A stretch of DNA of 64,000 nt from Agarophyton chilense (Eukaryota; Rhodophyta; Florideophyceae; Gracilariales; Gracilariaceae), in the NCBI GenBank assembly GCA_030374765.1, contig JARGXX010000037.1:434001-498000 (forward strand). The letters are read 5' to 3'. The translations under genes and the position numbers were made by a program. The notes below the pieces were generated by a model. It did not search any database, was not told where the DNA came from, and worked only from the letters and a program-made list of their open reading frames with translations. Shown one piece after another: positions 2,011 to 56,226 of this stretch (positions are counted from its first letter, which is position 1; each line of letters starts with the position of its first letter).

Positions 2011-2013
2011 GTT

Positions 2014-2911
2014 TGTAGGACAACGCTGGGAGCGTAGACACCACGAAGATGTTCGGGATCTTCCTCTCTTGAGAGACACGCTTCAGGCGGAGGAGACGCG
2101 TCCCAGCGGAGCACATAAACAGAGCCACTCTGCAAAGGCATGACGAAGTCGGGTGTAAGACCGAGGCCAATCCGGCGGGATACACCTAGAGTTTTTAGGT
2201 GAGCACGGCAGAGTCCGGGGTGTGACCAATCCTAGGCGGAGCGGTATCACGGCGATTGTCGGGAGAGGAGCGAGGAAACACTCGTACGAGGGGGGCGAGC
2301 GGGGTGAGTGAGGCGTCCACTTACGAGAGCCAAAAAAGAGAACAAGAGGAAAACGGGGGCGAAACCCTATACAGGGGCGAGACTACGACAAGTGTCGGCG
2401 ATTGAATATGAATCCACGGTGGTGGTAGCACTCTGGTCGACAGAGTGGTGGATGAACTAACGTGCAACGGGCGCTCACGCATTATGCGGTGAAGACGCGC
2501 CGAAGGTGAAAAGTTCAGAGCCAAGACTCCCCCCTTGGGATCTCCCAAGAGGGTGTTTACTGGGGAGCAGTGCTCAACCTCCAAAGTAGTGTGGCGCGCG
2601 GCCCCTGACAGTGGGCGCGCGCCCGAAAAATAGACACTAAATAGCGATAGCGTATCTAAATAAATACTAAATAATACTAAATAATACTAAATAATACTAC
2701 CCACTAGGTAGAATCCGGGCCACGTGTGGCACGCCTCGCACTCGAGCGTCGGCATCCGTGCAGTCCACGTGTTCCACCAGTGTGCACCTCCGGTCCTAAC
2801 CGGCCGTCGGCACGCAATAGCGGTATAGCTTGTCATAGACCGAGCTAGTTCTCAAGCCAGCGAAATCTCCAAGTCCTGAAAAGAAACCCCCCTGAAGGGC
2901 ATTCTTCTTCA
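2014..2911 (-). repeat. LTR of element A
   Basis: 898 bp. On the minus strand it starts TGAAGAAGAATGCCC and ends TTGTCCTACA, so the ends form an imperfect inverted repeat. It matches the element B 3' LTR (18051-19006) over its whole length, roughly 92-95% by eye, and carries only one copy of the 34-bp unit that is repeated in B. An A/T-rich run of TAAATAATAC-like units lies at about 2655-2705. Related but more diverged LTRs stand alone at 30650-31524 and 43111-44040. Confidence 0.85.
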
Positions 2912-3157
2912 TATCCCCCTCCTTAGGTGACGAACACGCCCTCGATATGGCTGGGGGGCAACGGTCCAACCGGCATAAGAGCGAGCCGCGTAACGCGTCC
3001 AGCGACCACTCGACTGTCGAAGGCAGAGCTGCGCAACCGAACGACAAACGCGCCAACGCGGTAACCACTCGTCGAACTTCGAGCGCTCTTCCGCATCGTA
3101 CGCCAACTTCCAGCGACCACATCCCGATACCTCGGCGACCAGTACTCCCGATGAACG
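2912..3157 (-). other. 3' internal remnant with polypurine tract, upstream of LTR A
   Basis: Homologous to 17807-18050 of element B. A purine run (minus strand AAGGAGGGGGATA, about 2912-2925) abuts the LTR as a plus-strand primer would. On the plus strand this piece holds the first about 70 codons of the antisense ORF described for element B, starting at ATG 2947; it then runs into unrelated sequence and stops at 3180. Homology ends sharply near 3157. Confidence 0.75.
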
Positions 3158-4800
3158 CTGTCCCCAACAAACATCGGTGAGCAGCTTTCGAACAAGCTCT
3201 TGCGCATCGCAAAGCTTGTGGGGCTGGACTTAGAAAAGCATTTTCCGCGTGCTCACCACCACGCCCAGGGGGCTTACGACTTTCGAACTGCTCCAATCTC
3301 CCTTGTCCGGATTGCAGGACAATCCTAATCGCTGCAGTAGAGCTCGTACTTTGAGCCCAGCTCTTGCGCAGTGCACAGGGACAGCTATGATTTCAATCCA
3401 GGACGAAGCGGTCAAGAAATCATTTAAGTAGGCCAAGACCCTTTAGCCGAAGCGCTGCAATTCCGTAACGAATGGAGTCATCAACCGCGTGAACCAGATC
3501 GGCGAGTGTACCCGTCCAAACGGCAACGCCACATAACAAAAGGATCTTCCATACTAAGAGAGCAGAAACCAGTCCAGCATGGCTGGCGCAAACCGCATGT
3601 TCCGGTCCTCCTCGCTCGAAGACCATGGATATCATGTAGTGTCCCTGCTGTAACTTCATTGGCAAATTTCTGCACGGATTTAATGCGTAATGAGCCGCAG
3701 TTTCAGTGCTTGGACTGTATCGAAAGGTTGATGACGAAAAAACACTGGCGATCTACTTGTTTCTCTTGCCAGGTAGTAAAGGCCGACAAGAAAACCACTC
3801 CCGCTCGTAAACAACGTTCCATATGCATCCGTGATAATTCCTGATATATTTCAAGCTTTCCACCCTCTTCCTCAACGCAAAGGCCTTGCCCTCTTCTGAT
3901 TGTGGCACGTCCGACAGCTGCTCACCATGACTCTGAGTGAAGGGCCGAGAGGGAACTTCGTACAAACCATACTTGATTACTCGGTAGAGGTACTCCGAGA
4001 AACAAATCTCACGCCATCCTTCGGCTTTGCGCTGTGCTGCAAGCCATAGATAACGCGAGGGTTTGATTTTGCCTACTGTTTTTTGGCGGACGAACCCCTT
4101 CTACTAGTGCGCTTTGTCGCGTTGATGGAGTGGAGGGTTGCTACCGCCTTCAGGAACTTGGTCGCCATGTGTGATTCCAGACGTCCCATGGGTTCTTCTA
4201 AATCGTCAGCTGCCGCAATATCCCCTTTCTTCTCCAATAAAGGTAGCACCAAGTATGCGTGAGTGGGACCCTCCGCCCCCGTTTTGTAGAACTTGCAGCG
4301 AAGACCCACCACTCGCGGGACATACTTAATCAAAACAATGGCCCTATTGTCAAACTTCGTGGCTTCTTTATACTTTTTATCGACCAATGACTTTTCACGT
4401 AATACGATTGCAGCCTCATGGAAAGCCATTCAGTATGCAGATACGTTAATGTAGATAACATCGTACTCGGACACAGCTCTCGTGGTGGTGTGCTTCTCCA
4501 TATGCCTCCACAAGGGCCACACCCGATGTGCAAAAACCCACCATTAAACCCTTGAACTGCGAGGCCCTGTTCATACGAATAGCCAGTCAATCCGAAGTCC
4601 TTATCATCTCGACAATGTCAGACAGCTTTGGTATATGCAACCATGTAAGCTTCGTCAGTCCCCGCACCCTTCAAAGAACCTTTGATTTGAAACGTTTTCG
4701 CTTTTTCCAGCAGCGCGCTAGCGTCCGCTGAGCTATTTTTTAAAGCACTCATTGTCATACAGATCACCGATCTGCTCAGCCAAACCCGTTTGGCCAACAC
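3158..4800 (-). mobile_element. DIRS-like retroelement remnant with broken reverse transcriptase
   Basis: Pieces of a reverse transcriptase can be followed on the minus strand in several frames. From about 4040 an N-terminal part reads GWREICFSEYLYRVIKYGLY and on; further down come VALPFG, IWFTRLM and AYLNDFL, then LQRLGLSCNPDKGDW and a LGVVVSTRK block. The order LPFG, Y-x-D-D-like box, LGL..N..KG.W, LG.....T is the pattern of DIRS/tyrosine-recombinase type RTs. The catalytic box is YLND instead of YxDD. At least one stop (TAA before the box) and two frameshifts break it. Upstream, 4073-4800 holds open stretches in two frames that I do not recognise. No recombinase gene or termini were found. 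Confidence 0.5.
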
Positions 4801-6162: not shown

Positions 6163-6240
6163 TATTCGCATATCGTATTCGCATATCGTATTCGCATATC
6201 GTATTCGCATATCGTATTAGCACATCGTATTCGCATATCA
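6163..6240. repeat. 13-bp tandem repeat, six copies
   Basis: Unit TATTCGCATATCG. Copies 1-4 are identical, copy 5 has two changes and copy 6 ends in A. Confidence 0.95.
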
Positions 6241-6663
6241 TAGTATTCATTGTGAAGTATAGCTCACCTCACCTCTCGCAATACTCCTCTCAGAGACCCT
6301 TTGGATCGGCTGCCAGCAAATTCCGAATCGAATACCGGATCATAAAACAAGCGACGTCCATCATGATCCATATATCCCATGAGCCTCTTGATGCACGTAA
6401 TGCCCTCCACACTCCGACGAGTGTCGCGCAGTGTGCCTCGACGGTTTCGGCCAAGTAGAAAGCTAAACGGAAGCTGCAAAGCTTTGTCCAGACGCAAACC
6501 ATACAACCAATTGATACGGCCAAGTTTGAAAGTCTTGCAATACAATAGCTGCTCGGCGGGTGTTCGACAACATGCATCAGCTTCCCAGATCTCGTCTATG
6601 AAACCGTAATAAACGTCGAAGGAAGCATCAGATGCACCTCACTGCTTATCGCTGCGTGTCAAG
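6241..6663. other. No gene recognised between tandem repeat and transposase relic
   Basis: Short overlapping ORFs on both strands without recognisable motifs. May be the 3' part of the CACTA-type element. Confidence 0.4.
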
Positions 6664-9313: not shown

Positions 9314-9667
9314 TTTATTTGGCGCTGATCTCTTCCTTGCACGCCTTACAGATTCTATTCTGTAATCGGATGAAGCTGTGCTTTATGCGCTCTCATTTTG
9401 ACCTCTCGACTCAAACAACGGGTTTATGAGATCTGCTTCTGCACCTTTTGTTCCCAAGTTCTGGCGAAATCGTCTTCGCCCTCTCAACTTTACGCATCCT
9501 TACTGATCAATAACAGTGCCAGATGTGATCTCATTCCCCAAGTACATGTGTTGCACAATGTTGATAACACAACAGATTCCGGACGGAAATGGGAACACTT
9601 TCTTGCGTTCTGAGAACGAAACGAAAAGTAGTCCGGAGTTCATGCCGAAACGAAACTGTACTCGGGC

Positions 9668-10361
9668 ATGCACGTATATTCTCCACAATTCTGGCGCAGC
9701 CGTTCCATCAACCGTTTCATCCTTCATCCGTGTTCGCTCTGCAGGCTTTCACTTCTACACACCAAGTCGCACACTAGCTTGATCTCCTTTCAGGTCTCTT
9801 CACCACTTTATTCCAGGCTGTTCAGCAATGTGCCCTTCGATACCACAGAATCATCTGTCTCACAAACAGGACAAGATAGTACAGGATATAAAGAACGCGT
9901 TCTCTCATTTCCCACTCGCAACGAGTCCCTCCGGAGAGAAAAACAAGGTGTTGATGACAAAGGGGCTCAAAGACGCATGCGCGAAATATTCAATCGGAAA
10001 ATGGAATCATTGGAAACGCGTGAGTATGACAAAGAGAAACCGCTTACCGAAGAGTTCATACATGCAGCTATGCGAAGCGTTAGAGAGTACATCTACTCAG
10101 TGTGTAACATACCTGATGATGGAAAGATGATATATCGGTCTTTCGTTCGTGAGCACCCGTTGGTTGTGGTTGAACTCCGATCCAAAATAGAAAGCTACTT
10201 TCGTATTCTTCGCAAAGCGGAGGGTCAGTTGGCTGCAAACATGCTCATACAAGAGACTCTGAGACGTGATCGTGCGTATGGAATTGGTGGGGCAACTGAC
10301 CGAAGACCGGTCGAGATTCAAAACTCTAAGGCACATTTCCATGATACTGCGAATTTACAGG
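9668..10361 (+). CDS. Unrecognised ORF, truncated by element B
   Basis: I do not recognise this protein. An open frame runs from 9668 and ends only at 10432, inside retroelement sequence in a frame that is not that of gag, so the genuine C-terminus is lost at about 10361. Residues from about 90 on are rich in Arg, Lys and Glu with heptad-like spacing (MREIFNRKMES onward, then RSFVREHPLVVVELRSKIES), suggesting helices. A pyrimidine-rich tract ending in CAG at about 9793 could be a 3' splice site, so the first codons of the open frame may be intron. It could be a gene of the neighbouring CACTA-type element (divergently oriented) or a host gene. Confidence 0.35.
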
Positions 10362-13300
10362 AGGTCGCGCAGACGGTGAAGCCCTGGGCGCACGCACTCC
10401 TGGATCTAGAGTTAGGTCCGCAAAAGCGTTGATTTTACAGCCGGGTTCCCCGTCAGCCTCGATGATCAACGAACAGGCCTCTCGAAGGGATTATGATAAC
10501 CTGCAGCTAGCCCATAGCGACGTTCATTCCATCCCGACAACGGAGTTACCCTCAAACTTGGACGAGTCACAAAACGTGATTGAAGATGACACGCTACTCT
10601 ATGCGGATAATCGTCGCGTTCGTGCGCCACGTGTCTCACACAAGAGTGGTAATGTCCGCTTTTCGCGTCCCGGTGGGAGAGATACCCGCCCCGCGGTGAA
10701 GTTCGCCGAACCTCGCTACCAAACACCGGCTTCTGGTCTGATTTTTCATCTCTGCTACAAACCAGGTCACACGTCTCCACAATGTGTGTTGTCTCTCCGA
10801 GAATGGGCACAAGTCGTAGTCAATTACAAGGCCCTATCTTCGGAGGACAAAGCAGCTGTTCCGATTGCATCGTATATCCGTGCTCTAACGGATGTTCCAC
10901 GTCACGTGTCGCTTCCCCGAGCTCGGGTGGTACCTGCAACGGAATCCCGTGTCACCAACGTGGTCGATCACCCCACTGCTTCTGCGGTACCTTCTGGACC
11001 TGATGCCCAGGCGTTGCCCGCTCAACGCCCTGAGCAGCCGCCTCCGGCGGAGCAGGCCCAGAAAAAAACTAAATGTTGGAGTCTCCTCTCAAGGAGAGGC
11101 ACCCTCAGAGTCGAGGTCGACGGCGCCCGAGGCGTCCAAGCCTCGCTCCCGATCAAAATCCTTTCAATGAAAGAGGCTGACGATGACGTGAACTCGGAAC
11201 AAGTTAGTGTTCTGCGTCGTCCGTGGAAACGTGTTTCACATAACCGGTTCCCGGATAGAGTTTTGGTGATGTCCAAGAGAAACTACAACGTCTTTTCTGA
11301 CCTTGGCCTTTCACCCCAGTTTATGGTGCGACACCTTACCGTCTTAGACACCGGTGCCGGTCCGAACTTTGTCGTGGAGGAAGTGTGACCGCCTGCTTTG
11401 CAGTCTAGGATCCGCCGCTACCAAGTCCCGGAGGTCGCTGACGCGAACAACAAACCGTTAGATACGGTGGGTTTCATAGAACTGGTAGTTTACGTTGGCA
11501 CTCGCGTGGTGAAACTGGACTTCGTCGTATGTCGGAAATTAGCAACTCCAGTCATCTTGGGTTGTGACTTTTGCAACCGCTTCGTCGAAGCGATCTTCCC
11601 CCGCCAACGTCGTGTCGAGATGGAGGACGGATCGTCCACTCCGATCGTTCGTCGTCCGCTTAGGCGTGCCACGAAGAAGCATGTCCCGCTACCGGCAGCA
11701 CAGGAACCTGGACCGGATAACATTGAATCTAATAAGCTCCGCGTCGCAGCGTCGTTGTGCGTCCCCCCTGAGTCCAAAATGATGGTGAAAGTAACCTCCC
11801 GTTAACACGGACTCCGGGTCTTGCAACCATTGTCGTCACTGTATGACAGGCACAGCCTCGCAATTGCGAATGGAATCGTCCATGTGAAGCCAAACCAACC
11901 GTTTCACGTGCTGGTCGTCAACGTTGGGACTGTATCCCAGTATCTGGTGAAGAACCAAGTGATATGGTCCGTCATGCCGCACCCCATTGCTATGATGCCG
12001 ACAAAGCTGACCGCAGCTGACGTTCTCGGACTCGTTCACTCTAAGAAGGGGGACAGCCCGGAACCCGTTTCATCGCCAGTACCCGGGGTTCAACCTGTAA
12101 CATCAGGGAGGCAGCCCGTTTCGACGAGTGGTCACCGCCCCGATCCAGTCCAAGAACTCGAAGACCTGGATCTCAGCCACGTCCCGGATTCATACCGCCA
12201 TCGATTGCGAGAACTTTTAAGGGACTTCACCACTATGTGGGACGGCTCCCTTGGTGAGATTGCCACTACGGAACACCGGATTGATTTGCTACCGGACACC
12301 CGACCCATCTCTCAGCACCCATACCGTGCCGGACCCGCCGCACGCGTGAAGGAAAAGGCACAAGTGGATATAATGCTTCGAGCAGGAGTCATTGAACCGG
12401 ATCAGTCGCCGTGGCCTTCTCCAATAGTACTGGCTCCAAAGCAGGATGGTTCCTGGAGGTTTTGCGTCGACTACCGTCGGTTAAATACCGTCAACGTCAA
12501 GGACGTTTATCCAATCCCAAGAATGAACGAGCACATTGACTCGCTAGGCACCGCCACCGTCTTTTCAACCCTGGACGCCAATTGAGGATACTGGCAAGTT
12601 CCGGTAAGGAAGCAAGACCAGGATACAACCGCTTTCGCGTGTCACTCCGGTCTCTACCGTTTCAAACGGATGCCTTTTGGTCTTACCAACGCCCCCGCTA
12701 CTTTCCAGCGAGCCATCGACATCCTATTGGCTCGCTTCAAATGGCGTACCTGCCTGGTCTACCTGGATGACATAATCGTCTTCTCACATAATCTGGACAA
12801 ACATCTCACTCATGTGAGGGATATGACGACTGCGCTTCGAGATGCGGGTGTCACTCTTAAGATGAAGAAATGTGACTTCTTCACGGACACCGTGAAGTAT
12901 CTCGGCCATGTTATCCGTCCAGGACGTGTTACAATCGAGGAGACTCGTGTTGAGTCACTCAAAGAGGCTAAAGAACCGCGGACGCAAACCGAGCTTCGCT
13001 CCTTTCTGGGACTCGCAAACGTCTACCGACGATTCATCCCGCACTTTGCGGACAAAGCCGCACCGTTAAACACGCTTTTGCGGAAAGGCCAACCACCAAA
13101 ACTGGACCCCTTAACACCCGTTCAAACGGAATCTTTCAACTCTCTTAAGGATTCTGTCGTCTCCGCCCCGATCCTCTCGTTGCCCAAGCCTGGAAGGCCC
13201 TTCACCGTAGATACGGACGCCAGCCACTACGAAGTAGGTTGTGCACTGTTTCAAACTACACCCAATGGGTAAAGACGCCCCGTCGGGTACTAGTCCCGAT

Positions 13301-16079
13301 CGCTAAACGTCCACGAGAAGAATTACTCCGTCTAGGAGAAGGAAGGCTTTGCAGTAGTGCGGGCATTAAAAACATTTCGCCCCTATCTCATGGGTAATCA
13401 TTTCACCGTTTTTACGGACCACGCATCACTTCGATGGCTACTCTCCATCTCGGAGCCTTCAGGCCGCTTGATGCGTTGGCGTCTCCGTCTAGCGGAATTT
13501 GACTTTGACGTGCAGTACCGAAAAGGATCGTGCAACAGCCAAGCAGATGCTCTCTCCCGCCTGGTCACTACTGGCGAAGCACTACCCGTCAAAGGCGATG
13601 AAATACCCTGCTTTGAAGTGAATGGCGACGACGTTACCATCGAGGACGAGGAACGAGACACGGACTCTTCAGATTCCGGTTCCGAATTGAACCACTTTCT
13701 TCTCTCGGAAGATTCCAAAAAACCGTTAACAGGGAACTTCGTGCCTATTACTCCAGAGGAGATGATACGGGAGCAATAAGCTGACCCGTTCTGCGTGAAG
13801 GTCCGCGCTCAACTCAATGGAGGAGTTATTCTACCCTTTCAGGTGAATGACGCCGGATACCTTGTACAGATCGTCGGATCGCACCCACAAATCGTGGTAC
13901 CACATTACCTCCAGTCGAGAGTCCTGCGGTTGTCGCACTACTCCAAACTGAGTGGCCACGTCGGGGGACGGAAACTTTACCTCACCCTACGCCGTAACTT
14001 CTACTGGCCTGCCATGGCAGTGGACTGTTACGCATCTGTGCGGTTTTGTACCGATTTCGCTCGGAACCGTGTCAAAATCCGCCGTCATGCGACGAAGTTG
14101 AAGCTGTTTCCAGCTCGCGCTCCATTGGAGTTTTTGGCCATCGATATACTCGGTCCCTTCCTTACCAATAAGGGGAATTACAAGTTCTTACTCGTAATTA
14201 CGGATCGCTTCTCCAAGCTGGTCCGGACTGTACCGTTACGGAAGATCTCTGCTATGAGCGTGGCTCAAGCCTTCGTCCTACACTGGGTTTTCGTCTACGG
14301 TCCACCGGTCAACCTCCTCTCCGATAACGGGAGACAGTTCGCCTCTCGTTTCTTCGAGAATGTGTGTCGCATCTTGGACATTGAAAACCTGTTTAGGACC
14401 ACTTACCACCCCCAAACTAATGGGCAGGACGAACGGTTCAACCAGACATTACTTGCGACACTCCGTTCATACGTTGCAGACCACCCCAAAGATTGGGACT
14501 TGTTCACTGATGCGCTCACCTTTGCGTACAATACGCAGATGCACAGGAAAACTGGATTAAAGCCCTTCGAGCTGGTACTGTCCCGTATCCCAGCGCCCGT
14601 GGCGCTGGAACCACAGCCCACGCTGGATACCTTTCCGTCACCGACTGCTTACCGCGAAGCGTGGAAAACTTGGCTCACGAAGCTCGTTCGCGCCGCACGG
14701 CGTTCAATGGGCCGAGCCCAGGCCGTTATAAGCGTGACTTTGATACCAAAGCCCCTCGCTCGCCGCCACGTCTCGCCCCCGACGGTTATGTATTCATCCG
14801 CAAGGAGTATTGGAACCCAGAGAAGGAGAAACGCCACAAGCTGTCACCCGTTGCCGACGGCCCCTTTCGGGTTATTTCGGTGGCTCCCGACACTGTCGTT
14901 GTTGACCTCGCTGGTACTCACGAACGCATCTCCCACGATCGCGTGGTATCGGCTCCCCCGCCGTTAACATCCCAACCTACTGGTGTGACTGCTCCCGTTG
15001 AAACGGATTCATCGACCCCCTTACCCCAGGTCCACCCGCGTCCCTACGCTATACCACACCCATCTCGGGGTTTGTCTGACCTTCCGCTACCCGCGGCGCC
15101 CAACCCGCAAAGAATCGTGTCCGGCATTTGTCGCTCCTCCCCAGTCCACCCGACGGACACCAACCCCGGTGCATCGTCTAAGGAGGGGGAGGCGCCCGAC
15201 AGCCGTCGTAATCCGGTCGATACCGTCGCTCGAAACGCCGCACCGTCACGTGTCATTCTTCGCCCATCAGAGGTGCCTGATACCGATGTCCTGCACGACT
15301 CGACGCAGTCGCTATCCAAGTCTCAGAACGCAGCTGCGGATAACGCCACCAACACTCGCCGAGGTGTCACCACACGTGCAACACGGAATGCAAATGCGCT
15401 CGACGTACCGCAGCCTGATACAGTACGAGTGGACGACGCACCGCCAAGTACCCCGCACAGGGAGGCCGATACATCCACGGCGCCGACGCCGGACAGCCAG
15501 CCATTGGAACGCTCACGTGACTACAAGGAATCTCGCCGTGGGACAGAGAGGTGCGACAATGCGCCGCCGCCCCAGCGAATCTCACCGCCGAAGCGAGCTT
15601 CACCACGCCGACTAGCGGAACGACCACCCAGGTTACCCGCCGGTGTGGGCCCTCCAACCGGAGTGGGAAACGCCGAAGCAAACCAGGCACTTGGGGAAGA
15701 TGAACCGCCGAAGTCGGGTCGACATTTTACTCAGCCGAGGACTGCCTTGCGCGCTACACGGTCCGACCGGAGCGAAGCTGCCCAACGCGTGATCACTTCG
15801 GTACCCCCAAACTCAGGACGGGTACCACCCGGAAATAGCGACACCGTCATACGGGATGGCCGGGAAGTGTACCGACAAGAGTTCGTGGTCGGACGCATTC
15901 TGGAGCACTCCTACCACCCAGAGGGGTATATCCAACACTTGGTCCGTTGGTACGGGTACGGCCCCGAGTGGGATTCAGACGAACCGATAGAGCACCTAAC
16001 TCGGTCAAGGGTGGTACAGTATCATGGTCGTACTGTCACGGCTTTGCCGGCTACCATAGACCAAGCCCAAGTGGGATAA
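10362..16079 (+). pseudogene. gag-pol polyprotein of element B
   Basis: One frame covers 10362-14720; the rest continues in another frame to TAA 16077-16079, so there is one frameshift near 14720. Domains in order: variant zinc knuckle (Phe 10744, Cys 10753, His 10768, Cys 10783); protease DTGAGP at 11347; RT with intact YLDD at 12760-12771; RNase H starting PFTVDTDASH near 13200; integrase with H-H then a damaged second zinc pair (RFCTDF, where C-x2-C is expected), catalytic D in DILGP, D in LSDNG and E in QDERF; an integrase C-terminal region; a long Pro/Ser/Thr linker; and a chromodomain ending with LVRWYGYGPEWDSDEP (about 15865-16020). In-frame stops: 11386 TGA, 11803 TAA, 12583 TGA, 13270 TAA, 13291 TAG, 13333 TAG, 13777 TAA. 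Catalytic residues mostly survive, but the copy is dead as written. Confidence 0.9.
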
Positions 16080-16343
16080 GAAGGCACCCAATAGGGATAA
16101 AGGAACAGAACATCTGGATAAGGACCCTTGGAAGAAGGAGAAGATGCACAGAAGACCTGTAGAAGGACACTCAGAAGAAGTGGAAGAGAAGAAAGAAAGC
16201 AAATACGTCATAGACGGAAGCAGTTTACTATTTTCGAAGTTGCTGCACACACTACCGCACAGCAAGGTATACTAACCAAGTTCCCAAGGGATCAGTTGGA
16301 AGAACCCGGATTACCGTGCGCGCCAGCCGGATCGCTAGCGGAG

Positions 16344-18060
16344 TTACTCCCGCCGGCCAGGCGTGCCACGAGGGGCATCTCTCATCGTACCGATGTCGCC
16401 GCTCGCCACTTGTGCGTTCAGTCCAACACCCCGAAGGAACTGGGAGATCACGGCCGCCTCTGGGCGTATGGGAACCTCGATGACTTCCGGTTTGTCCGAC
16501 AACGCCGCCGCCACTGGATCGACGACCGCAGCTGCGTGAGTCGCTCCCAGCGCCGGCAGCGCCGTAGTATCGGCCCCATCGGGGTATCCCACGTCTTCCA
16601 TGACCTCGTCGCCACGTTATTCGCCCTCCTCCTCCGGGAGATCATCACTGCCCTAGGCGTAGTAGAAGTCATCCGAGTTGACAAACCCCACGGGGTGCCC
16701 GTATGGTATGCCTCGCGGAGCCATCCGGAGTGCCGACGCCTCTGCCTCGGAGATCTCTTGCTGCGCCCATGCATTAAAGAAGATGAAATCTCCCGCCAAC
16801 GGCGTGCGACGCCCCGGAGACCGATCAGCCCCACTGGCTTCTTGACCACGGCCGCTCTTCCGGACAGGCACGACAGCCCAGTCGACACTCCCAATGATGT
16901 CGGTGAGCTCCTGAGATTCATCAGCGTTATTGACACCTCCAAGAGGGAGTTGAAGGTCCAGCTGCCGGATGTAACCACGCAAACGCGGAGGAGGATACCA
17001 CAGTCGATACTGGTCGTAGGCTTCCCACAAGATGTACGCCGCGGCGCGGACTGCCCATTCTGTCAGGCCCAACGACCATAAGCCGGAGAGCGGATCCTCA
17101 ATGAGGTACGAGCCCAGATAGGAGACGACTGGAGGCAACTCCACGTAACATCCCCGGCACACCTCGACGGAGGACCACCACCCAGGCAGGAGAACGTATC
17201 GACTGAACTTATAGAAAGGACTAATCCGGTTTATCTCCGTGTTCTGAGAAGGGACAAGGAACCCAAAGCGGGATCTGCCCCGAAGCTCCTCGCGGATGAA
17301 GTTCTGTAACCACCGATATCGGGACTCACGACGAAGGTGACGGAACTCGGCACGAATGATCGGACGGACCCAGCAGATCGCTTCTTGACGCGCTTGCGGT
17401 TGACCGCGCCATGCGTAAGTTTCCAATGCCGCAAGGCGGTCACAATAGCCGATCTCACCCTGAGTCTGGTACATCCGTAGGTGTAAGCCGAATTCGTCGG
17501 GGATGGGGTATTGGAAGTTCGCCAGGGAGACGCGCATTGCCATCAGCACACGCCGCCACGAGTTCTTCGTCGAAGACCGCTGTCGGATGGAACCACGGAG
17601 CTCTCCGGAGAATCGCCGCATGTTGACTCGGGTTTAATCCGACGAGTTCGTCGTAACTGGCCCAGGTGTTTTCCGCAGGAGTGATGTGGCTTGAATCTTC
17701 AACAGGACCCGGGGATCGGCTCGGCGCGGTTAACGAGGCACTCCCCCGCGGAAGGGGAGCCGAATAGAAACCGGAGAAGTAACCCCGGCGGGGATTGTTA
17801 CCACCGTTCATCGGGAGTACTGGTCGCCGAGGTATCGGGATGTGTTCGCTGGAAGTTGGCGTAAGATGCGGAAGAACGCTCGAAGTTTGAGGAGTGGTTA
17901 CCGCGTTGGTGCGTTTTTCGTTCGGTTGTGCAGCTCTTCCTTCGGCAGTCGAGTTGTCGCTGTGCGCGTTACGCAGCTCACTTTTATGCCAGTTGGACCG
18001 TTGCCTCCCCGCCATGTCGACGGCGTGTTCGTCACCTAAGGAAGGGGATATGAAGGACAA
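16344..18060 (-). pseudogene. Antisense-encoded third ORF of element B
   Basis: Function unknown. It lies between the end of pol and the 3' LTR and points against pol. The frame opens at ATG 18060-18058, ten bases inside the LTR, or at ATG 18015. The first 200 codons (to 17455) are Pro/Ser/Arg/Asn-rich and probably disordered. A frameshift at about 17500-17600 leads to a second frame (17621-16653, 322 codons) that is Trp/Tyr/Arg-rich and looks folded, including ISPFYKFSRYVLLPGWW, YLGSYL and LWSLGLTEW. After TAG 16655-16653 the same frame stays mostly open to 16344. The central part matches the antisense ORF of element C in protein but not in codon choice. No signal peptide, long membrane segment or known fold is visible. 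The 2947-3180 ORF of fragment A is the same N-terminus. Confidence 0.7.
18037..18050 (+). other. Polypurine tract of element B
   Basis: TAAGGAAGGGGATA directly abuts the LTR start, the expected site for plus-strand priming. The homologous tract sits beside LTR A and a similar one beside the 3' LTR of element C. Confidence 0.75.
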
Positions 18061-19006
18061 TGCCCTTCGAGGGGGTTTCTTCCCAAGACTTAGAGATTTC
18101 GCTCGCTTGAGGACTAGCTTGGTCTATGACAAGCTATACCGCTATTACGTGGCGACGGCCGGTTAGGACCGGAAGTGCACACTGGTGGAACACGTGGACT
18201 GCACGGATGCCAACGCTCGAGTACGAGGCGTGCCACACGTGGCCCGGACTGTACCTAATGGTTAGTATTATTTAGTAGTTTTTAGTATTTATTTAGCTAG
18301 TCTATCGCTATTTAGTGTCTATTTTTCGGGCGCGCGCCCACTGTCAGGGGCCGCGCGCCACAACACTTCGGAGGTTGAGCACTGCTCCCCAGTAAACACC
18401 TTCTTGGGAGATCCCAAGGAGGGAGTCTTGGCTTTGAACTTTTCGCCTTCTGCGCGTCTTCACCGCATAATGCGTGAGCGCCCGTTGCACGTTAGTTCAT
18501 CCACCCCTCTGTCGACCAGAATTCTACCACCACCGTGGGTTCATATTCAATCGCCGACACTTGTCGTAGTCTCGCCCCTGTATAGGGTCTCGCCCCCGTT
18601 TTCCTCTTGTTCTCCTTTTTGGCTCTCGTGAGTGGCCGCCTCACTCACCCCGCTCGCCCACCTCATACACGTGCTTCCTCGCTCCTTTCCCGACAATCCC
18701 GGTGATACTGCTCCGCCTAGGATTGGTTACACCCCGGACTGTGCCGTGCTCACCTTAACAGTCTAGGTGTATCCCGCCGGACTGGCCTCGGTCTTACACC
18801 CGAATTCGTCGTGCCCTTCCAGAGTGGCTCTGTTTCTGTGCTCCGGTGGGACGCGTATCCTCCGCCTGAGGCGTGTCTCTCAAGAGAGGAAGATCCCGAA
18901 CACCTTCGTGGTGTCTCCGCTCCAAGCGTTGTAACATCTTCGTGGTGTCTCCGCTCCAAGCGTTGTAACATCTTCGTGGTGTCTCCGCTCCAAGCGTTGT
19001 CCTACA
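18051..19006 (+). repeat. 3' LTR of element B
   Basis: 956 bp, starting TGAAGGACAATGCCC and ending TTGTCCTACA. Aligns end to end with LTR A. It is longer mainly because a 34-bp unit near its end is repeated. It should supply the poly(A) site for pol. Its left edge also carries the start codon of the antisense ORF, which implies antisense transcription out of the LTR. Confidence 0.9.
18904..19000 (+). repeat. 34-bp tandem repeat inside LTR B
   Basis: Two full copies (18904-18937, 18938-18971) and a 29-base third copy of a unit beginning CTTCGTGGTGTCTCCGCTCC. LTR A has a single copy, so the expansion arose after the copies separated. Confidence 0.95.
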
Positions 19007-45034: not shown

Positions 45035-45667
45035 TGTCGTACAATCACCTCTGGGGTATGCTATTGTCTTGTCTACGGAGCGTAGTGACGCTCAACCGTA
45101 GGGAGCCTGGTGACGCTCAACCTTAGAAGGTAGACGTAATAAACCTCGATTGTAACAGGGCACCGTGAAAACCTGCAGGTGCAAACGGTGGGGCAACTAG
45201 TCTATACCGAGTAGGTGAAAGATGGTAGGCGTCGACGAGCGGGAAAGCCTTTGTGGTAGTTGAGAAACGATGAACCAAAAGGTATAGTCGTGACCCAAGT
45301 GGTGCCTGTCTTTATCAGATTAGGATGTGGGAGGTGCAGTTCCCTATATGCAGTGGACTGCACTCTCCAGATCACCCGGGAGGTGCCAGCAAGGCACGGT
45401 CCCTGACCTAGTGTCAGAGACCTGGCTGCACTGGCTACAGTGCCAGGTGGCCACTCCACTACTGTACTAAAATGAATATAATTACAATTACAATTACTAA
45501 CAATTACTCAACCAGAAGGTACATGTCAACACTACACGTGGTTGACAACACCTAGATGGTAGCTCGCCCGGAGCTGCCTGGCCGATGATCCCTCGCACCC
45601 ATCACCTACAAGGTCAGTGTAGTATATTGACAACCTCAAAGGTCAGACCTTCTGCCAATATACGACA
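45035..45667 (-). repeat. 3' LTR of element C
   Basis: 633 bp, TGTCGTA to TACGACA. Includes an AATTACAATTAC-like A/T run near 45480-45505 shared with the other LTR. Confidence 0.95.
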
Positions 45668-45680: not shown

Positions 45681-46511
45681 CCCGTGAGGCACGCTCCGTG
45701 TGTCCTTCCATCGACCCATAGAGGTGTAGCGGGCGACAGCGGCGCGGGCATCGGAGTGGTGTCTGCACACGGCACGCGATCCCTTGAGGTGCAGAACTCG
45801 GCGCCAGTATCGCTTTGGGGGGGGGCGCGCGGCGATGTCGGCGCACGAATTGAGCGACAACCATTCGGGTAGGGACTGTTATGAGGACGATGCAGTGGAA
45901 CTAGCGCACTCGCGGACACCGTTTCGGTAGTGGCCCTGCTTGCTTGCGATTCTGCTTCCGCATAGCCCCCCTGTCTAACCAAGTTGGTGTCAGACCTTTT
46001 CCCCATTACTCAAACTTCAGTTCCCTCCTAGGTCCCTGCGCAGCGACGACCCGCCTGGTCGTTCCCACGGCTCGACAACCCTTCAGGTAGTGCTGCCCTT
46101 AATTGGCGGCGTCGCGACTGTAACCGTTTGTCCGGCTTTTCCCTGAAGGTTTCCGGGCTTCTCAACCTTTCAGGTTTCGTCTACCTTGTAAGGATTGACA
46201 CGTGGCGCCGGTGGGGCCTGAGCCTGCGTCGATACAACCATTGAGGTGTTGGCCTGGGTCCGTGGTGGAAGCTTCCGGGTGTGAGACCTTATTCGTGTTG
46301 AGCGGCCCCGTCAGTAATTACTCGACCTTTTTCCGGTTTTGCATTCCGGTTTACCCTCAATGCAATGACAGGATCGCGCCGCCTCTGCGCACGCGTTCGA
46401 ACCCATTCGGTACCACGTCGGTGCCCCTCGCGCCGCATCGTGGATTCGTCACCGATACCATGAAGGGGTGGGTCGTCCCCACAAGCAGCACCAGCGCTCG
46501 GGAGACGTGAG

Positions 46512-48783
46512 ATGCCGGTTACCATTGAGGTTGAAGAAGTTGGAGATTCGGAGGGGATTGATACCCCTGCAGTTATGTCTTTCAGGTCGGATTGGTCCCG
46601 TTCCACAATACCTCAAAGGTCTGGACCCGCTCGCGACCGCACGCCGGCCACTGTTGTACCCGGAAGGTCAGTGTCGGTACTACCGGAAAGGTTGGATCCG
46701 TTGGCCATCTGCTCAGAACGGACCGAGGAGGCTCTACTTCAGAAGGATGAATACCCGCTGGTGTTCACCGCGGCGGTGGGGGTCCAGTCATCACCTCGTT
46801 CGTCGGGTCGAGCTACGGCCTTCCCAACCATTTCAGGTAGCGGCCCATCTCGTGGCCGTGGACGCGGTGGTATTACCAAGAGGGTGACTTGCTCGACTTC
46901 GCGAACGCCTACCAACATTGGGTTTCGCAGGGTGCCTGTCCTTGCGACTCAGTTCTCCCCTGGGACTCCGGCTGACCCGTACCAACGCAGCGGTGGACTT
47001 CCTTCGACGATTCAAACCAATTGGGCTCACAATCTCGCGTTTGTTGCGGCGAATCGGAAGACGAGTCAGTATGGACTTTTTGCTATTACCTTCGACCAGG
47101 TGACGAACAATGACCTGTTGAAGCATGATTGGCCTGTGGCGGTGGGGAATTCGTCACTGCGTTGGGACTGCGAGCGCCTTCGCTCCGTTCCATTGCTTTT
47201 GAAGAAACGGGACCAAGAGTCTCAACCTTGTCAGGGTCGACTGGCATGTTACCAGAGTCCGCAGCGACATATACCTTTGAGGTATTTCATCCCGCCGACA
47301 TACCCGAGCGACTTGCCGTATGTGCGCATCGAACCGGAGCTGGATTATTACCGTCGATTGGTGGTGCAAGTGTGCCAGTACCCGTCTATTCCGGAGACTT
47401 ACCTTCCGGTTTCACCTCACTTGGTTTCCCTGAATCGGCCTTTCACCACTATCAACTGGGCTGAGCGTAGTAGGTGGGGCGAGGATGCAGCGACGGAGAG
47501 TCGCGTTCGCACTCGCAACTCGTACACTCGCGTTATGCATATGTTTCAAAACGTCGAGTACTTCTCACAACCTACGAAGGATAGAGGCGATTGGTAAGTG
47601 CTTCTACCAGAGTGATGGCAGTCCTATGAGGTTCCGTTGTCACTGAGCGTGCCCACTCCGCCGGTCTTCGCGTACTTCGGGAGTCATATTTCCCGCAACC
47701 TAGAGAGGTATTACCTCATTTGGTCGATTGCCCTCACGGAATGGACCTTATTGGTTGCCATCCTGGCTCTAGAGGCCGCTCGTTACGGTATCGATTGGGA
47801 TTGTCGCAATCCCGACTCTGACCCATACCGAGATGGTGTTCAACCTGTAGGTCGCATCTTCTTCATACCTCCGAGGGTTGCCCAGGATATTTCCCGATTT
47901 GGTTACGAGAACATCGTGGAGGGGAGCGATTATACCGTGAAGGATTTGGACTCGTATCTCGAGCAGAGCAAGAATTACCATTGGGATTCCCATCAAGGTT
48001 GGGAGCCTTTCGATCCCGCTGCTTGGGAGATAGTGCCTCGCCACGCAAAATACTATCCCGGGGAGCTTCCTGTTTATGGAGCTCCCGCGAGCCCCGAACC
48101 TTATCATGGTACTCTGGAGACACCAGTTGGTCGTTATGCTGGTCCCTTCCCGTCGGAGCCGTTACCTCAAGGTCGTAAGTCGCCTATCCTTACGGGTGTG
48201 ACTCCTACTCAACCGAGCTCCTTGCGGGGTTGCTGGTCCGTTTCGACCTCTGTTGGCGAGTATTGCTCGTCGTTCACCTCAACCTATGATGGATTTTCCG
48301 GCCGTGGTCGGTTTGCTGGCTCAACTTCGCCAGTCTTGCGTCACCAACTTTCAGAGGGCTGGTCCTACCTCCGTGGTTGCTGTATTAACGCTCCTTGAAG
48401 GTTTGCTGCCGCGCCATGCGCAATAAATGAAGGCGCTGAACCATCTTGGTGAGTTACGGAATCAGTTCCAGTTGGACATGTACCAACTGGCCACCCGTCA
48501 GGTTGCCAATCTGGCAAGCGTCTCTGCTGCTGCGCCATCTGATCCTTTGTTGGATCCCGTTCTACGTTCAAACTTGAACCCTGCGGTTTTGCAATCTCCT
48601 CCGGCGGTTCCTTTCGTTCATCCTCTCTTGGTTTCGACTCCTCTCTCCAGTGGCTGGGCTACCGTTCCTTCGCTACCTCTTAGGTCGATGGCTACTAGCA
48701 TTTCCGCAGGTTTTCCTCCGCGGGTAGTCAATAACACGGGTCCTCCTGTTTCCATTGCTCCTAAACCGACAGGTCCTTCTTAA
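46512..48783 (+). pseudogene. Antisense-encoded third ORF of element C
   Basis: Function unknown. Opposite in strand to gag-pol and convergent with it; its end (48783) is about 130 bases from the end of the chromodomain frame (48915). One frame from ATG 46512 to 48398 is interrupted only by TAA at 47595 and TGA at 47613. Around 48200-48300 it shifts into the frame that continues through TAA 48424 to 48783 (LGELRNQFQLDMYQLATRQV). The region around 47600-47790 aligns with the element B antisense ORF: VLLPE*WQSYEV against VLLPGWWSSVEV, AYFGSH against SYLGSY, IWSIALTEW against LWSLGLTEW, and ALEAARYG against LWEAYDQY. An earlier 45585-45872 ORF starts within the LTR and may be a leader. No known fold, signal peptide or membrane helix was recognised. 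Confidence 0.7.
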
Positions 48784-49163: not shown

Positions 49164-52100
49164 TCAAGGGTTCATATGTTCCGAGTTGGGAGCTTCGTGT
49201 GTGAGAGCCGGGTCAGGAGCTCCCGCTGTTACCGTTTGGGGTTCCATTTCCGTCCCTGTTAGAGGGTTGTAATCCGGATCATCACGTTGACGGTCATCGT
49301 TCACCTCAATTGGGGTGGGGTCCTCCGAGGGTCGAGTGCGCAGAGCTACCGCTCTGGGCTCTCGGGCTGTGGTGTCCGCCTCCATGCCGTGTTGAACCGT
49401 TTCAGGTGCTACCGTAATACGGTCAATTGATATCGTATTCGGTATTCCGTCCTGTTCAACCGTAACGGTGTGGTTGGATGCGTTCAGTACCTTATAGGGT
49501 CCCACTGATCTGGGTAGAAGCTTCGAATTCATATTTCTGTCAATAGCTTCGTCGTCTGCTTCATCACCCGGTCGTGGTCTTTTACCTGAAGGTGGGTTAT
49601 CTATGTAGACATATTGTCCCGAGGATACAGACACCACTTTGGTTATCCTACGGTCGTAGTCGGCCTTGTACCGCTTCTGGGCTGCAGTGAGGCGGCTCTC
49701 TGCATGTTTGAGAGCCCTCCTCAACCTCACAAGGGTATTCCGCTTGACCTGGGCAGGGGTCAGTGCGCCAGCTGCAGTGCTCGTGGTATGATCTCCCTGC
49801 ACTACAATACCTAGGGGGTGTCGCGACAGATCCAAATCAAAGGGAGTGGTCTGCGTTGAACGGTGTACCTGCAGGTTATAGGAGTAGGTGAGCGGTTGCA
49901 CCAGCTCATCCTACCCAGTTTGGTGCTCTTCCGTATAGTGCCGTATCCTTGATACCAAAGTGTAGTTAAAGCGCTCGACCTGTCCGTTCGTCTGCTGGTG
50001 GTAGGCAGTAGTGAAATAGTGCTTGATACCGAAGAGGTTACAGTCTGCTTCGAAGAACTTCAATGCCAAGTTTGAACCATTATCGGCAAAAAGGTACAGT
50101 GGTGCATCGTACAGGTATACCCAATTGTTGAGGAACGCGATCGCCAGCGTGGTTGACTTCGTCTCCTTTAAAGGTATCGCTCTTGTGAGCTTCGAGAACC
50201 TGTCGGTGATCACTAGAATGTGCTGATATCCATTCTTGGTTTTGGGAAGTGGTCCTAGAAGGTATATCGCAACAAACTCCAGTAGACCCGCTGCTGGGAA
50301 CAGCTTGAGGTATTTTCGATGCTTTCGAATACCACCGCGGTTACGAACACAAAACTCGCATTGACCTACAAAAGTATAGACATCATGGGCCATATGAAGC
50401 CAATAGAACTGTTGCCTCAAGGTGTAATACATCCTGGTGGCACCGGGGTGTCCCGATAGTCGCGGGTAGTGCGCGAGATACAAGACTCTCGGGCGCAGTG
50501 CCTTCGGAACCACATTTTGAAGGCTACCATCCAAGGTTGACCTTCTCACGATGTACCGATTGTGGTCCACATCGAACGGTGATACTTTGAAACCAATTTG
50601 GTCAGCCATGGTTCTGCAGTACGCATCCTGGGCCTGTTCACGTAGAAATTTCTCTCGGGTTACGGGCATGACGTTCGTTTCCTCGAGGGTCAGTATCTGA
50701 GTTGCCGTGTCGGTGTTCCGCAAAGCACGTTCTTCAGGTGAGTCCCAACATCCTCCTAGGTGGTCGCCGGTACCATTTTGGTTTGATGACACCAAAAAGC
50801 AAGGGATATCATCGTCCACCGGTTCTGTCTCTAACATTGAGGTGTTTAAGCGTGACATAGCGTCAGGTATGTTGTGCTTGATACCTGGACGGTACTGTAC
50901 GTCGTATTCAAACTCGGACAGTCTCAACCTCCAACGGGCAAGTCCACCAGACGCATCTGCGGGTCCGAGGATCCTCCTTAACGCGTCGTGGTCCGTGCGC
51001 AACGTAAAGCGCTCACCATACAGGTGTAGAAAAAGCATCAACATGCTCCAAACTACTGCTAGACATTCCTTCTCGGTTACCATGTAGTTTTGCTCCGCCT
51101 CATTCATAGCGCGGCTCCAGTATTTTATAGGTAATTTGTATGCGTTGTGCTGCTCCTGCATGAGACAACAACCAATTTGGGCATGGGATGCATCTGTATC
51201 CAGAGTGTATGGTAGACCTGTTTTCTGTATCGCTAGGATTGGCGGCGACAACAGCGCTCGTTTCAATGCCTCAAAGATGTCCATTTATTCGTCCGATAGA
51301 TTCTCAAACCGTTCAGGTTCACCTTTCTGGAGCTTCTTGTTGAGGGGAGCCGCCATTTTCGCGAATCCCTTCACGAAGCGACGATAGACGTTAGATAAAC
51401 CTATAAAGGATCGTACGTCTGTCTGGGATCGTGGCAACTTGACCTTCTGTACGGCTCTAATGTTTCTTGGCGCAACCTCTAGGGTACCAGGGCCTATGAA
51501 GGAGCCCAGGTACTCAACCGTTCTGGTAAAGAAGACGCATTTTCACAGCTTCAGCGTCACTTCCGCCTCAGTTTGGAGGGTTAGTACGATGCGTATGTGT
51601 GCAAAGTGCTCTTGTACCGATCTGGAATAGATGATTACATCATCGATGTATACCAAGGCGGTTGTCCATTTAACCTTCGAAAGGATGATGTCCAGCACCC
51701 TTTGAAAGGTGGCTGGAGCATTGCGTAACCCTAACTGCATCCGCATGAAGCGAAACAAACCTGCATGGCACATGAAGGTCGTTTTGTCTCGATCTTCCTC
51801 ACCTACGGGTACCTGCCAATAACCACAATTGGCATCCAACGTGGAAAATATCTGCGTATCTCCCAAAGAGTCGATGCACTCATCCATTCTAGGTATCTGG
51901 TACGAATCCCTGATGGACACGCTATTTAGTCTGCTGTAGTCCACACAAAACCTTATACGGTTATCCCCTTTCTTCTGAACCAGAACCACGGGACCAGCCC
52001 AATCTGAGTTGGCTGGTTCAATTACCCCTTCTTGGAGCATTCGCTCCACTTCTTTGAGTTCTATCTCTCTCGCGTTCAGACCTGCTCGGTATGGTTGCTG

Positions 52101-53701
52101 ATAAATCGGCTTCGAGTCAGGGAGGAGCTCGATGCGATGCTGTGTGGCCTTAATTTGGCCCAGATGGCCTGACCACATGGTTTCGAACTCCTCCAGAAGG
52201 TCGATATTACGGCCCCGCTGTCGGCCGTTTTCTTTACCAATCTGGACTGTATCTTGCCATTGTCTCTCAAGGTCCGGTTTCTCTTCTTTGTCTACCGATG
52301 CCTTATCGGTTAGCTTCGCTTCCATGTTGGTATTTATCGATACCTTTGTGGTTGTGGACGCATTTGCACACCCCCCCTCCTTATCGAAGGCGACCTCGCC
52401 GAGATCAGTGTGAGCTACGGTGAAGACCCCTTGTGGTGCCGGTAGTGCGATGCCAACATTGGTATTTTCCGCCAACCTCACGTCATGACTGCTGGAGTTG
52501 CTGAGACACACCTTAAAGGGTTGATTTGGGATGTTGTCGACAATCCCGTTGGCCATCAAGGTGAGGTGTCGATGTGCTAATCTCGGATGGTTTTGTAGAA
52601 TGACCAGCCCGGTGGTCGCACACGACACCGGTACCAATATTTGGTGCATTGGCGGGATAACAACCTGTTTGGTAATGTGCACTTTGTTGGAGACCGTTTC
52701 GGTGGAGATCGTCTTCTTCGGTTTGACGAACCATCCCCGTTTGGTTTCCGTATTACCTGAAATGGCAATTCATCCCCCCTGACGTAGGGCGACGGTATGG
52801 GAACCAGGAAGGATTGCTTTGACATGTCTGTCAATGAAGTTCGTACCAAGTAGGCAGTCTGTTGGCAAACGGTCGACAACAAAGAATTGTGGTCTTAACT
52901 TGAGGTGTCCGAGCTGCCCCACAGTGGTGAGCATACCTCGAAGGTTTAATGGGCGCTCATTTGCATCCACCAGCGGGTTGTTGTCGGGAGGTCGGCTCAA
53001 GTTCCGAAGTACCGCCTCAGGTATGACGTGGGAGTTCAGGACCTTTGGGCCGGCCCCCGTATCCAACATGCAGGTGACCGGAACCGCAAGGCGATCGGAG
53101 AAACACATTGAAGCACGTACTTTATAGTTGTTGTACTTCATATGACAAACCGGAATTGGTTGTGACGTGTTCTCTTCCACTTTCAAGGTTCTGGGTATCG
53201 ATTGGCCTTCCAATTGCTGGTTGGGTTCGGCCATTACGCCAACCATTCGGTTTTTTCCTCCTGTACGGGAGGGGTTGAGTCCAAGTTTGGTGTTTCCTCG
53301 ATGGTATTGACCTGTACCTGTGTACGGGGTTGGAACCTATTTGGTGCTTGCGTTGAATACCAATAGAGGCGTTGGTGATTCTGCCTGCGAGCCTGAATCA
53401 ACTGGTCTCTCATCCCTGGAGGTAAGTTAGGGCAATTGTTTGCCAAATGGTCTGTCGCGAGACAAAACCAGCAAACGAGGCCTCCAGTTTGAGGGTCTCG
53501 CGTTACCATTGAGGGGGGTTTCGAAACCTGGTTGGTAGGAGCAGTGGCGTAGGATGTGGGTGGCGAGTTATGGAAGCTCGCTCCTGGCATCCTATGCGAG
53601 CTCACCGAACTTGGCGGCGATTGTACCGAGTTTGGTGTATGCGTTGACGACCAATTTCCTCCCGTCAACGGTTTCGGGAACCGCCCATGGGTCACTACCA
53701 A
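49164..53701 (-). pseudogene. CCHC-PR-RT-RH-INT polyprotein of element C
   Basis: Begins (53701-53234) with a canonical zinc knuckle, CWFCLATDHLANNC, then passes by a frameshift at about 53240 into the pol frame. Protease LDTGAGPK lies at about 53055-53063 and LLGTNFIDRHVKAI follows. RT has YIDD at 51650-51639. RNase H includes YTLDTDASHAQIGC (about 51200). The integrase zinc pair is intact (CEFC), with D in YLLGPLPKT, D in FADNGSN and E in TNGQVERFN. Stops in frame: 52772-52770 TGA, 51545-51543 TGA, 51287-51285 TAA, 49913-49911 TAG. The last aligns with Trp in B (TGG to TAG). Catalytic motifs are complete, so the decay is mainly nonsense. Confidence 0.9.
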
Positions 53702-55592: not shown

Positions 55593-56226
55593 TGTCGTAC
55601 AATCACCTCTGGGGTATGCTACTGTCTTGTCTCGGGAGCGTGGTGACGCTCAACCGTAGGGAGAGAGGTGACGCTAAACCTTAGAAGGTAGACGTAGTAA
55701 ACCTCGATGGTAACAGGGCACTGTGAAAACCCGCAGGGGAAAACGGCGGGGCAACTAGCCTATACCGTGTAGGTGAACGATGGTAGGCGTTGACGCGCGG
55801 GAAAGCCTGTGTGGTAGTTGAGAAACGATGAACCAAAAGATAAATTGGTGACCCAAGTGGTGTCTGTCTTTATCAGATTAGGATGGGGGAGGTGCAGTTC
55901 CCTATATGCAGTGGACTGCACTCTCCAGATCACCCGGGAGGTGCCAGCAATGCACGGTCTCTGACCTAGTGTCAGAGACCTGGCCAGCACTGGCTACAGT
56001 GCCAGGTGGCCACTCCACTACTGTACTAAAATGAATATAATTACAATTACAAGTACTAATAATTACTCAACCAGAAGGTACATTTCAACACTACACGTGG
56101 CTGACAACACCTAGATGGTAGCCCGCCCGGAGCTGCCTGGCCGATGATCCCTCGCACCCATCACCTACGGTGTCAGTGCAGTATATTGACAACCTCAAAG
56201 GTCAGACCTTCTGCCACTATACGACA
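55593..56226 (-). repeat. 5' LTR of element C
   Basis: 634 bp, same ends as the 3' LTR, with about 40 differences by eye. Confidence 0.95.

What the first reader, a model, noticed from the sequence alone, without database searches (positions are those of the whole stretch)
16344..18060. Conserved antisense-encoded third gene in Ty3/gypsy chromodomain elements (copy in B)
Between the chromodomain end of pol and the 3' LTR, element B has a long ORF on the opposite strand. Its middle part matches the antisense ORF at 46512-48783 of element C. Matched pieces include VLLPGWWSSVEV/VLLPE*WQSYEV, YLGSY/YFGSH, LWSLGLTEW/IWSIALTEW. The codons differ mostly at third positions of the antisense frame (e.g. 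TGG TCG TTG GGC CTG ACA GAA TGG against TGG TCG ATT GCC CTC ACG GAA TGG), which is what selection on the antisense protein would leave. Antisense ORFs have been reported in some plant gypsy lineages; I know of none described in this lineage, and this protein resembles nothing I recognise. It might be an env-like, capsid-modifying or regulatory product.
Basis: partly seen in the sequence, partly recalled or inferred. Interest (0 to 1): 0.88.

Follow-up and report, generated by a model that had tools for sequence, protein, structure and literature searches.

The report
Antisense gene in red-algal retrotransposons
Jumping genes in a red seaweed carry an extra protein-coding gene written on the opposite strand to their other genes; the protein shows the marks of natural selection, resembles no known family that was searched, and its job is unknown.

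Summary
The window is from an 80 Mb red-alga assembly, by homology one of the Gracilariales. Element B carries, opposite to pol and before the 3' LTR, a dead copy of a ~622-codon gene; 123 main genome matches were listed, C's version gave 151, and two more subfamilies, D and E, turned up. B, D and E share 34-37% amino-acid identity; C about 24-29% over the central domain. In 8 of 8 frame-neutral comparisons the antisense frame scores best. Within B and C it has the lowest dN/dS of six frames (0.64, 0.67) and fewest stops; RT/RNase H in the same 14 copies has 0.61 against 0.68. Pfam, PHROGs and PDB profiles gave nothing credible. Antisense ORFs at this place are a known kind (Grande, RIRE2, Retand, Boty; PMC7264820); my searches showed none for red algae. 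Best reading: an accessory, perhaps regulatory, protein made from an antisense mRNA starting in the 3' LTR. Selection on the protein is well supported; transcript, promoter, fold and function are inferred or untested.

The parts
16295..18015 (-). Antisense gene of element B (subfamily B): ATG at 18015, about 622 codons by comparison with a natural uninterrupted copy; this copy is dead (two frame changes, two in-frame stops)
16653..17633 (-). Longest open piece (326 codons), holds the conserved core
   Evidence: 123 main genome matches
17455..18123 (-). Open piece with the N-terminal arm and the start of the core
14511..16079 (+). C-terminal part of pol of element B with a chromodomain-like tail (Pfam Chromo below its cut-off), converging on the antisense gene
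   Evidence: E 0.0022, 18.3 bits against cut-off 25.1
12586..14967 (+). RT, RNase H and integrase pieces of element B
   Evidence: 12586-13272 RVT_1 2.2e-27 and RNase H; 13780-14967 Integrase_H2C2 and rve
18038..18048 (+). Purine run AAGGAAGGGGA, putative polypurine tract; the 3' LTR of B is inferred to begin at 18051, about 35 bp upstream of the antisense ATG
   Evidence: LTR border of B inferred, no LTR pair shown
46365..48780 (+). Antisense gene of element C (subfamily C), broken copy: 46365-48227 and 48229-48780 in two frames, three in-frame stops
45035..45667 (-). 3' LTR of element C (TG...CA), 93.5% identical to the 5' LTR; purine run AGGAAGGGGG two bases from its inner border
55593..56226 (-). 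5' LTR of element C; GCTGC flanks the element on both sides (45030-45034 and 56227-56231)
49164..52769 (-). pol of element C (RT, RNase H, integrase)
   Evidence: for 49911-51284 and 51543-52769
2947..3159 (+). First 71 codons of the subfamily-B antisense gene in the inverted fragment A
   Evidence: 88.7% identity

Best explanation
It is an accessory gene of a clade of Ty3/gypsy retrotransposons with a chromodomain-like tail in gracilarioid red algae, placed tail to tail with pol between pol and the 3' LTR. SHOWN: the antisense frame is the conserved coding frame across four subfamilies, it is under purifying selection with an overall pairwise dN/dS near that of RT/RNase H, and its product is one protein family (in B, D and E a core of 325-326 residues, an acidic tail of pI about 4.1, and a short conserved C-terminal segment). 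INFERRED: it is translated from an antisense mRNA whose start lies in the 3' LTR, because in B and D the ATG sits only about 20 and 66 bp from the purine run next to the inferred LTR. INFERRED, weaker: the protein is a soluble regulator of the element's cycle (for instance of its nuclear stage, or of its silencing by the host, which has four Piwi-domain matches and would see double-stranded RNA from two overlapping transcripts), not an envelope protein.
For: Copies and open frames: 123 main matches, 32 without stop, 151 matches from 147 scored candidates, 77 matches, 54 without a stop over about 473 codons (the four of them read are subfamily D). Frame-neutral tblastx: antisense frame best in 8 of 8 comparisons covering the six subfamily pairs (e.g. 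438 bits against 190 for the next frame in B-D). Deep divergence: B, D, E 34-37% identity; for B against D codon-position differences 0.49/0.40/0.67, dN 0.70, dS 2.0. Within families: antisense frame dN/dS 0.64 (28 B copies) and 0.67 (30 C copies), other five frames 0.73-1.0; stops per copy 1.4 and 3.4 against 8.6-36. Same 14 copies: RT/RNase H 0.61 (bootstrap 0.51-0.69), antisense 0.68 (0.60-0.83). By branch: internal 0.68 (B) and 0.61 (C) of neutral expectation, terminal 0.83 and 0.80; nonsense changes internal 0.23 and 0.33, terminal 0.68 and 0.67. Chromodomain-like tail on the opposite strand in 52 of 68 loci (B 28 of 30, C 16 of 30, D/E 8 of 8), same strand in 0, not detected in 16. Relatives in three named species, all Gracilariaceae; G. 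chorda P0004 begins at the Met aligned to ours. Four Piwi-domain matches. ATG and purine run.
Against: No transcript or protein data at all. Within-genome dN/dS is only moderately below 1. In the 14-copy set the internal-branch value is 0.72 for the antisense gene against 0.36 for RT/RNase H (few events), and nonsense changes there are not rarer on internal than on terminal branches (0.61 against 0.57; 3 and 17 events), so the branch result rests on the larger sets. Some other frames also show fewer nonsense changes than expected (e.g. B gag-pol frame 0, 0.58; C gag-pol frame 2, 0.50 on internal branches). In C the ATG is about 700 bp from the LTR, so an LTR start is less compelling there. No domain, motif or fold match supports any particular role; no structure could be predicted.
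Confidence: 0.72

Rival explanations
1. The antisense transcript, not the protein, is the functional product: it pairs with the genomic RNA and tunes silencing; the frame is incidental.
For: Sense and antisense transcripts would overlap over about 2 kb (inference from the layout); the host has four Piwi-domain matches; antisense non-coding transcripts of other elements are known (PMC7264820, parts 1 and 2 of 3 read).
Against: An RNA role does not explain lower dN/dS in one frame, or protein identity of 34-37% at 45-48% DNA identity with the antisense frame best in 8 of 8 comparisons.
Confidence: 0.08
2. An envelope-like or structural (capsid-associated) protein encoded in reverse.
For: Position between pol and the 3' LTR, where env lies in retroviruses; polar arms around a compact core; the C copy has one stretch with hydropathy mean 2.1.
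Against: No conserved membrane-spanning stretch across subfamilies (0.9-1.5 elsewhere); no profile match in the PDB. The capsid version is not excluded.
Confidence: 0.12
3. A chance open frame, or a shadow of constraint on the gag-pol strand.
For: Mirror frames on the gag-pol strand also look similar between subfamilies (up to 33.5% identity), gag-pol frame 1 has dN/dS 0.73-0.75 and 0.92 and 0.86 on internal branches.
Against: That mirror frame holds 26 and 36 stops per copy and 14-20 stops in each of the four uninterrupted copies compared, and the antisense frame scores higher in 8 of 8 comparisons.
Confidence: 0.02
4. A captured host gene or the remnant of another mobile element that inserted in reverse and was kept (an account of origin, compatible with the best explanation).
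For: Reverse orientation and no detected relation to other known families.
Against: The eight proteins listed at E up to 10 are from Gracilariaceae or unnamed sources (only the 8000 candidates sharing most words were scored); no host or transposon relative by Pfam.
Confidence: 0.2

Closest known systems
Antisense additional ORFs of plant Ty3/gypsy elements (maize Grande gene23, rice RIRE2, Silene Retand ORF4)
   Same: Position between pol and 3' LTR, opposite strand, related across species, function unknown (PMC7264820, parts 1 and 2 of 3 read; PMC11963269, passages)
   Different: Retand is a non-chromovirus lineage and its ORF carries TRP28/PF04195, which none of 12 B/D/E-type members matches at E up to 1; here pol ends in a chromodomain-like tail and the host is a red alga; Grande and RIRE2 proteins could not be compared
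Boty of Botrytis cinerea with antisense gene brtn
   Same: An antisense gene in a gypsy element outside plants (PMC7264820, parts 1 and 2 of 3 read; PMC8365987, passages)
Antisense genes of retroviruses such as HBZ of HTLV-1
   Same: Would work alike: antisense transcript from a promoter in the 3' LTR (PMC7264820) and a nuclear regulatory protein (PMC11963269, passage)
   Different: No sequence relation tested; analogy only

Membership tests
Antisense aORF between pol and 3' LTR (aORF-3R) | ORF on the strand opposite to gag-pol | tested here: met
   52 of 68 loci with the chromodomain-like tail opposite, 0 same strand, 16 none
[quoted passage not shown]
   Element C with both LTRs and a 5-bp duplication; B by position and purine run
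Antisense aORF between pol and 3' LTR (aORF-3R) | Present in most copies of the family, with conservation like other element proteins | tested here: inconclusive
   Pairwise conservation similar to RT in 14 copies, weaker on internal branches; the share of all copies that carry it was not measured, since searches started from the ORF
Retand TRP28 antisense ORF | Transposase 28 domain PF04195 | tested here: not met
   0 of 12 members of A6 match it at E up to 1; nor do the three C pieces of the window
Env-like gene | Sense orientation, signal or membrane segment | tested here: not met
   Antisense; no membrane stretch shared by the subfamilies (C alone reaches 2.1)
Ty3/gypsy chromodomain elements (chromoviruses) | RT-RNase H-integrase order and chromodomain at the end of integrase | tested here: inconclusive
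   RT, RNase H, integrase met; Chromo E 0.0022 but below the Pfam cut-off, homologous tail in 8 of 8 D/E loci; no RT tree was built

The most novel reading that the evidence does not exclude
A new protein superfamily, confined to red-algal chromodomain retrotransposons, made from an antisense promoter in the 3' LTR and serving to protect the element against the silencing that its own overlapping transcripts would provoke.
Probability: 0.18. Interest if true: 0.82.

Novelty: new variant of a known kind. Interest (0 to 1): 0.58.

Why it matters
Antisense genes in LTR retrotransposons have been described without a known function (PMC7264820). Here four subfamilies, hundreds of listed copies and relatives in three named species give a strong test of selection in that frame, in a lineage far from the plant and fungal cases. 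It suggests that reverse-strand accessory genes arose more than once in gypsy elements, and it gives natural uninterrupted proteins on which function can be tested. It also means that gene catalogues of gracilarioid algae hold this transposon gene as 'hypothetical protein'.

Tried and rejected
Env-like reading not supported. Shadow of a sense gene rejected. Known domains: Pfam, PHROGs (3 proteins) and a PDB profile search gave nothing credible (best PDB E 0.88). NCBIfam and PADLOC were not searched. A DNA search with the 3' end of B was meant to show the LTR border through 5' LTRs, but all 40 scored matches (of 637 candidates) reach into the ORF, i.e. are 3' ends, so the border of B stays inferred. 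No 5' LTR resembling B's 3' end was found at 6000-10500. Structure prediction could not be done, so no fold search was made. RT of C, D and E could not be fetched, so there is no RT yardstick for C, no RT tree and no test of congruence between pol and the antisense gene. Rows dropped before counts: two copies identical to others over the ORF (L010, L024) from the B set, 30 to 28; of 20 RT pieces fetched 13 gave usable cover and were kept, plus the window copy, 14 in all; the four short N-terminal matches were left out of the 123. The frame comparison leans towards the antisense frame because its alignment was made in that frame; one search does not. One search compared 8 of the 24 possible pairs of the eight copies from different subfamilies.

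Full report
WHAT WAS CHECKED. The finding says that element B, a Ty3/gypsy element with a chromodomain, has a long ORF on the opposite strand between pol and the 3' LTR and that its middle matches an antisense ORF of element C. Both are in the sequence. The quoted codons are exact, at 17055-17078 (-) and 47721-47744 (+). The B copy is broken: ATG at 18015, frames changing near 17512-17618 and 16372-16374, in-frame stops beginning at 16655 and 16619, end near 16295. The C copy is broken too: two frames and in-frame stops at 46461, 47595 and 47613.

WHERE IT IS. The window is a 64 kb piece of contig 37 of a 79.8 Mb assembly. The genome has 13 matches to the phycobilisome linker family. The named relatives of the antisense protein are from Gracilariopsis chorda, Gracilaria domingensis and Agarophyton chilense, all Gracilariaceae. 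It is therefore a red alga, most likely one of the Gracilariales; the species is not established. Gracilaria assemblies of similar size are in print (PMC10388701, passages: 72 and 76 Mb, and 78 Mb for G. domingensis).

ELEMENT ANATOMY. Element C is complete in outline: LTRs at 45035-45667 and 55593-56226, 93.5% identical, TG...CA ends, a 5-bp flanking duplication GCTGC, and a purine run two bases from the 3' LTR. pol pieces of both elements carry RT, RNase H and integrase; the chromodomain of B scores E 0.0022, below the Pfam cut-off, but its tail is homologous in 8 of 8 D/E loci. In 52 of 68 loci that tail lies on the strand opposite to the antisense gene, in 0 on the same strand, and in 16 (2 B, 14 C; the query was the B sequence) it was not found.

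IT IS A FAMILY. With the B piece as query 127 matches were listed: the window copy, 122 others at 78-89% identity, and 4 short pieces; 32 of the 123 main ones have no stop. The tool scored only 123 of 1871 candidates, so this is a lower bound. C gave 151 matches from 147 scored of 1127 candidates. Relatives from other algae then brought up two further subfamilies in the same genome: D (77 matches to P0006, 54 without a stop; frames of 640-650 codons in those read) and E (frames to 611 codons). Uninterrupted natural copies exist in B, C and D.

SELECTION. Three tests agree in the main. (1) Shallow: among 28 B and 30 C copies the antisense frame has dN/dS 0.64 and 0.67, the other five frames 0.73-1.0, and 1.4 and 3.4 stops per copy against 8.6-36. 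In the same 14 copies RT/RNase H has 0.61 and the antisense gene 0.68, with overlapping bootstrap ranges. (2) By branch: on internal branches the antisense frame has 0.68 (B) and 0.61 (C) of neutral expectation, and nonsense changes 0.23 and 0.33; on terminal branches 0.83 and 0.80, and 0.68 and 0.67. That is the pattern of a gene needed by copies that go on to transpose. Against this, in the 14-copy subset the internal value is 0.72 for the antisense gene and 0.36 for RT/RNase H (20 nonsynonymous against 23 synonymous changes), and nonsense changes are about equally rare on both kinds of branch (0.61 and 0.57); some other frames also show fewer nonsense changes than expected. (3) Deep: B, D and E are 34-37% identical in protein, with differences of 0.49, 0.40 and 0.67 at codon positions 1, 2 and 3 for B against D, and dN 0.70 with dS 2.0; frame-neutral tblastx puts the antisense frame first in 8 of 8 comparisons covering the six subfamily pairs. 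C is the outlier: 24-29% over the central domain in the longer matches, significant in 28 of 30 loci, profile-profile E 8.8e-7 with probability 91.5.

THE PROTEIN. B and D have a polar N-terminal arm (not present in the two E frames read), and B, D and E share a core of 325-326 residues rich in Arg and Trp, an acidic tail (pI 4.05-4.21) and a short conserved C-terminal segment. No membrane segment is shared by the subfamilies, though C has one stretch of hydropathy mean 2.1. Pfam (scans that included 6 window or locus pieces of the antisense gene, then 12 alignment members), PHROGs (3 proteins) and the PDB (profile of A6) give no credible relative. Three protein searches found 9 distinct proteins, P0003-P0011: six from the three named species and three from sources that name no organism; each search scored only the roughly 8000 candidates sharing most words. 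P0004 of G. chorda is a 617-residue annotated hypothetical protein whose first Met aligns with ours.

HOW IT MAY WORK. The ATG lies about 20 bp (B) and 66 bp (D, L082) from a purine run that looks like the polypurine tract, so an antisense mRNA must start inside the 3' LTR unless its leader is very short (inference). In C the distance from ATG to LTR is about 700 bp. An annotated A. chilense model (P0005) begins with residues that by eye correspond to an open frame across the LTR border of C (45546-45872), but it looks like a gene model with splicing artefacts. Sense and antisense transcripts would overlap, and the host has four Piwi-domain matches. I therefore favour a regulatory or protective accessory protein. 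This last step is inference only.

COMPARISON. [quoted passage not shown] Grande's is transcribed from its own promoter and its protein is nuclear. Retand elements are non-chromoviruses with the TRP28 domain (PMC11963269, passages), which is absent here. The original papers on Grande, RIRE2, Retand and Boty were not seen. Searches of the paper library, of which I saw listings of at most 20 papers each, showed me no report of such a gene in red algae, nor in the listings in chromodomain elements; the passages seen of two Gracilaria genome papers (PMC10388701, PMC12502185) do not mention one, and most subscription papers are not in that library. So this is a new variant of a known kind, with an unrelated-looking protein; relation to the Grande, RIRE2 and Boty proteins was not tested.

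VERDICT. Conserved antisense protein gene: about 0.95. Antisense mRNA from the 3' LTR: about 0.6. Regulatory or protective role: about 0.45. Confidence in the combined statement as worded, with its last steps marked as inference: 0.72.

Noticed in passing
window 1-3160: Fragment A, inverted relative to B: 2020-3160 matches the 3' end of B (91%) and 1-493 matches B 10365-10857 (99%), as if an LTR sat between the end of one copy and the start of another.
   Followed up: partly
window 6000-10500: No 5' LTR resembling B's 3' end is present, so B is truncated, recombinant or bears a different 5' LTR.
   Followed up: partly
L020 upstream of 883 and window 18015-18435: Two copies of subfamily B with alike ORFs have quite different LTR-side sequence beyond about 75-120 bp from the ATG (by eye), suggesting exchange or fast turnover of U3.
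   Followed up: no
G000:C39: Three phycobilisome linker matches recur at a constant offset of 185,684 bp, as if a plastid genome of that size was assembled twice in a row (inference).
   Followed up: no
G000:C6, C80, C4, C27: Four strong Piwi-domain matches in frames of 891-1069 residues: the alga probably has RNA silencing.
   Followed up: no
window 38859-41498: Single open frame of 879 residues with HEAT repeats (Pfam), resembling a phosphatase regulatory subunit (that name is recalled).
   Followed up: no
window 45546-45872 (+): Open frame across the inner LTR border of C that by eye matches the start of the A. chilense model P0005; could be a first exon of the antisense gene.
   Followed up: no
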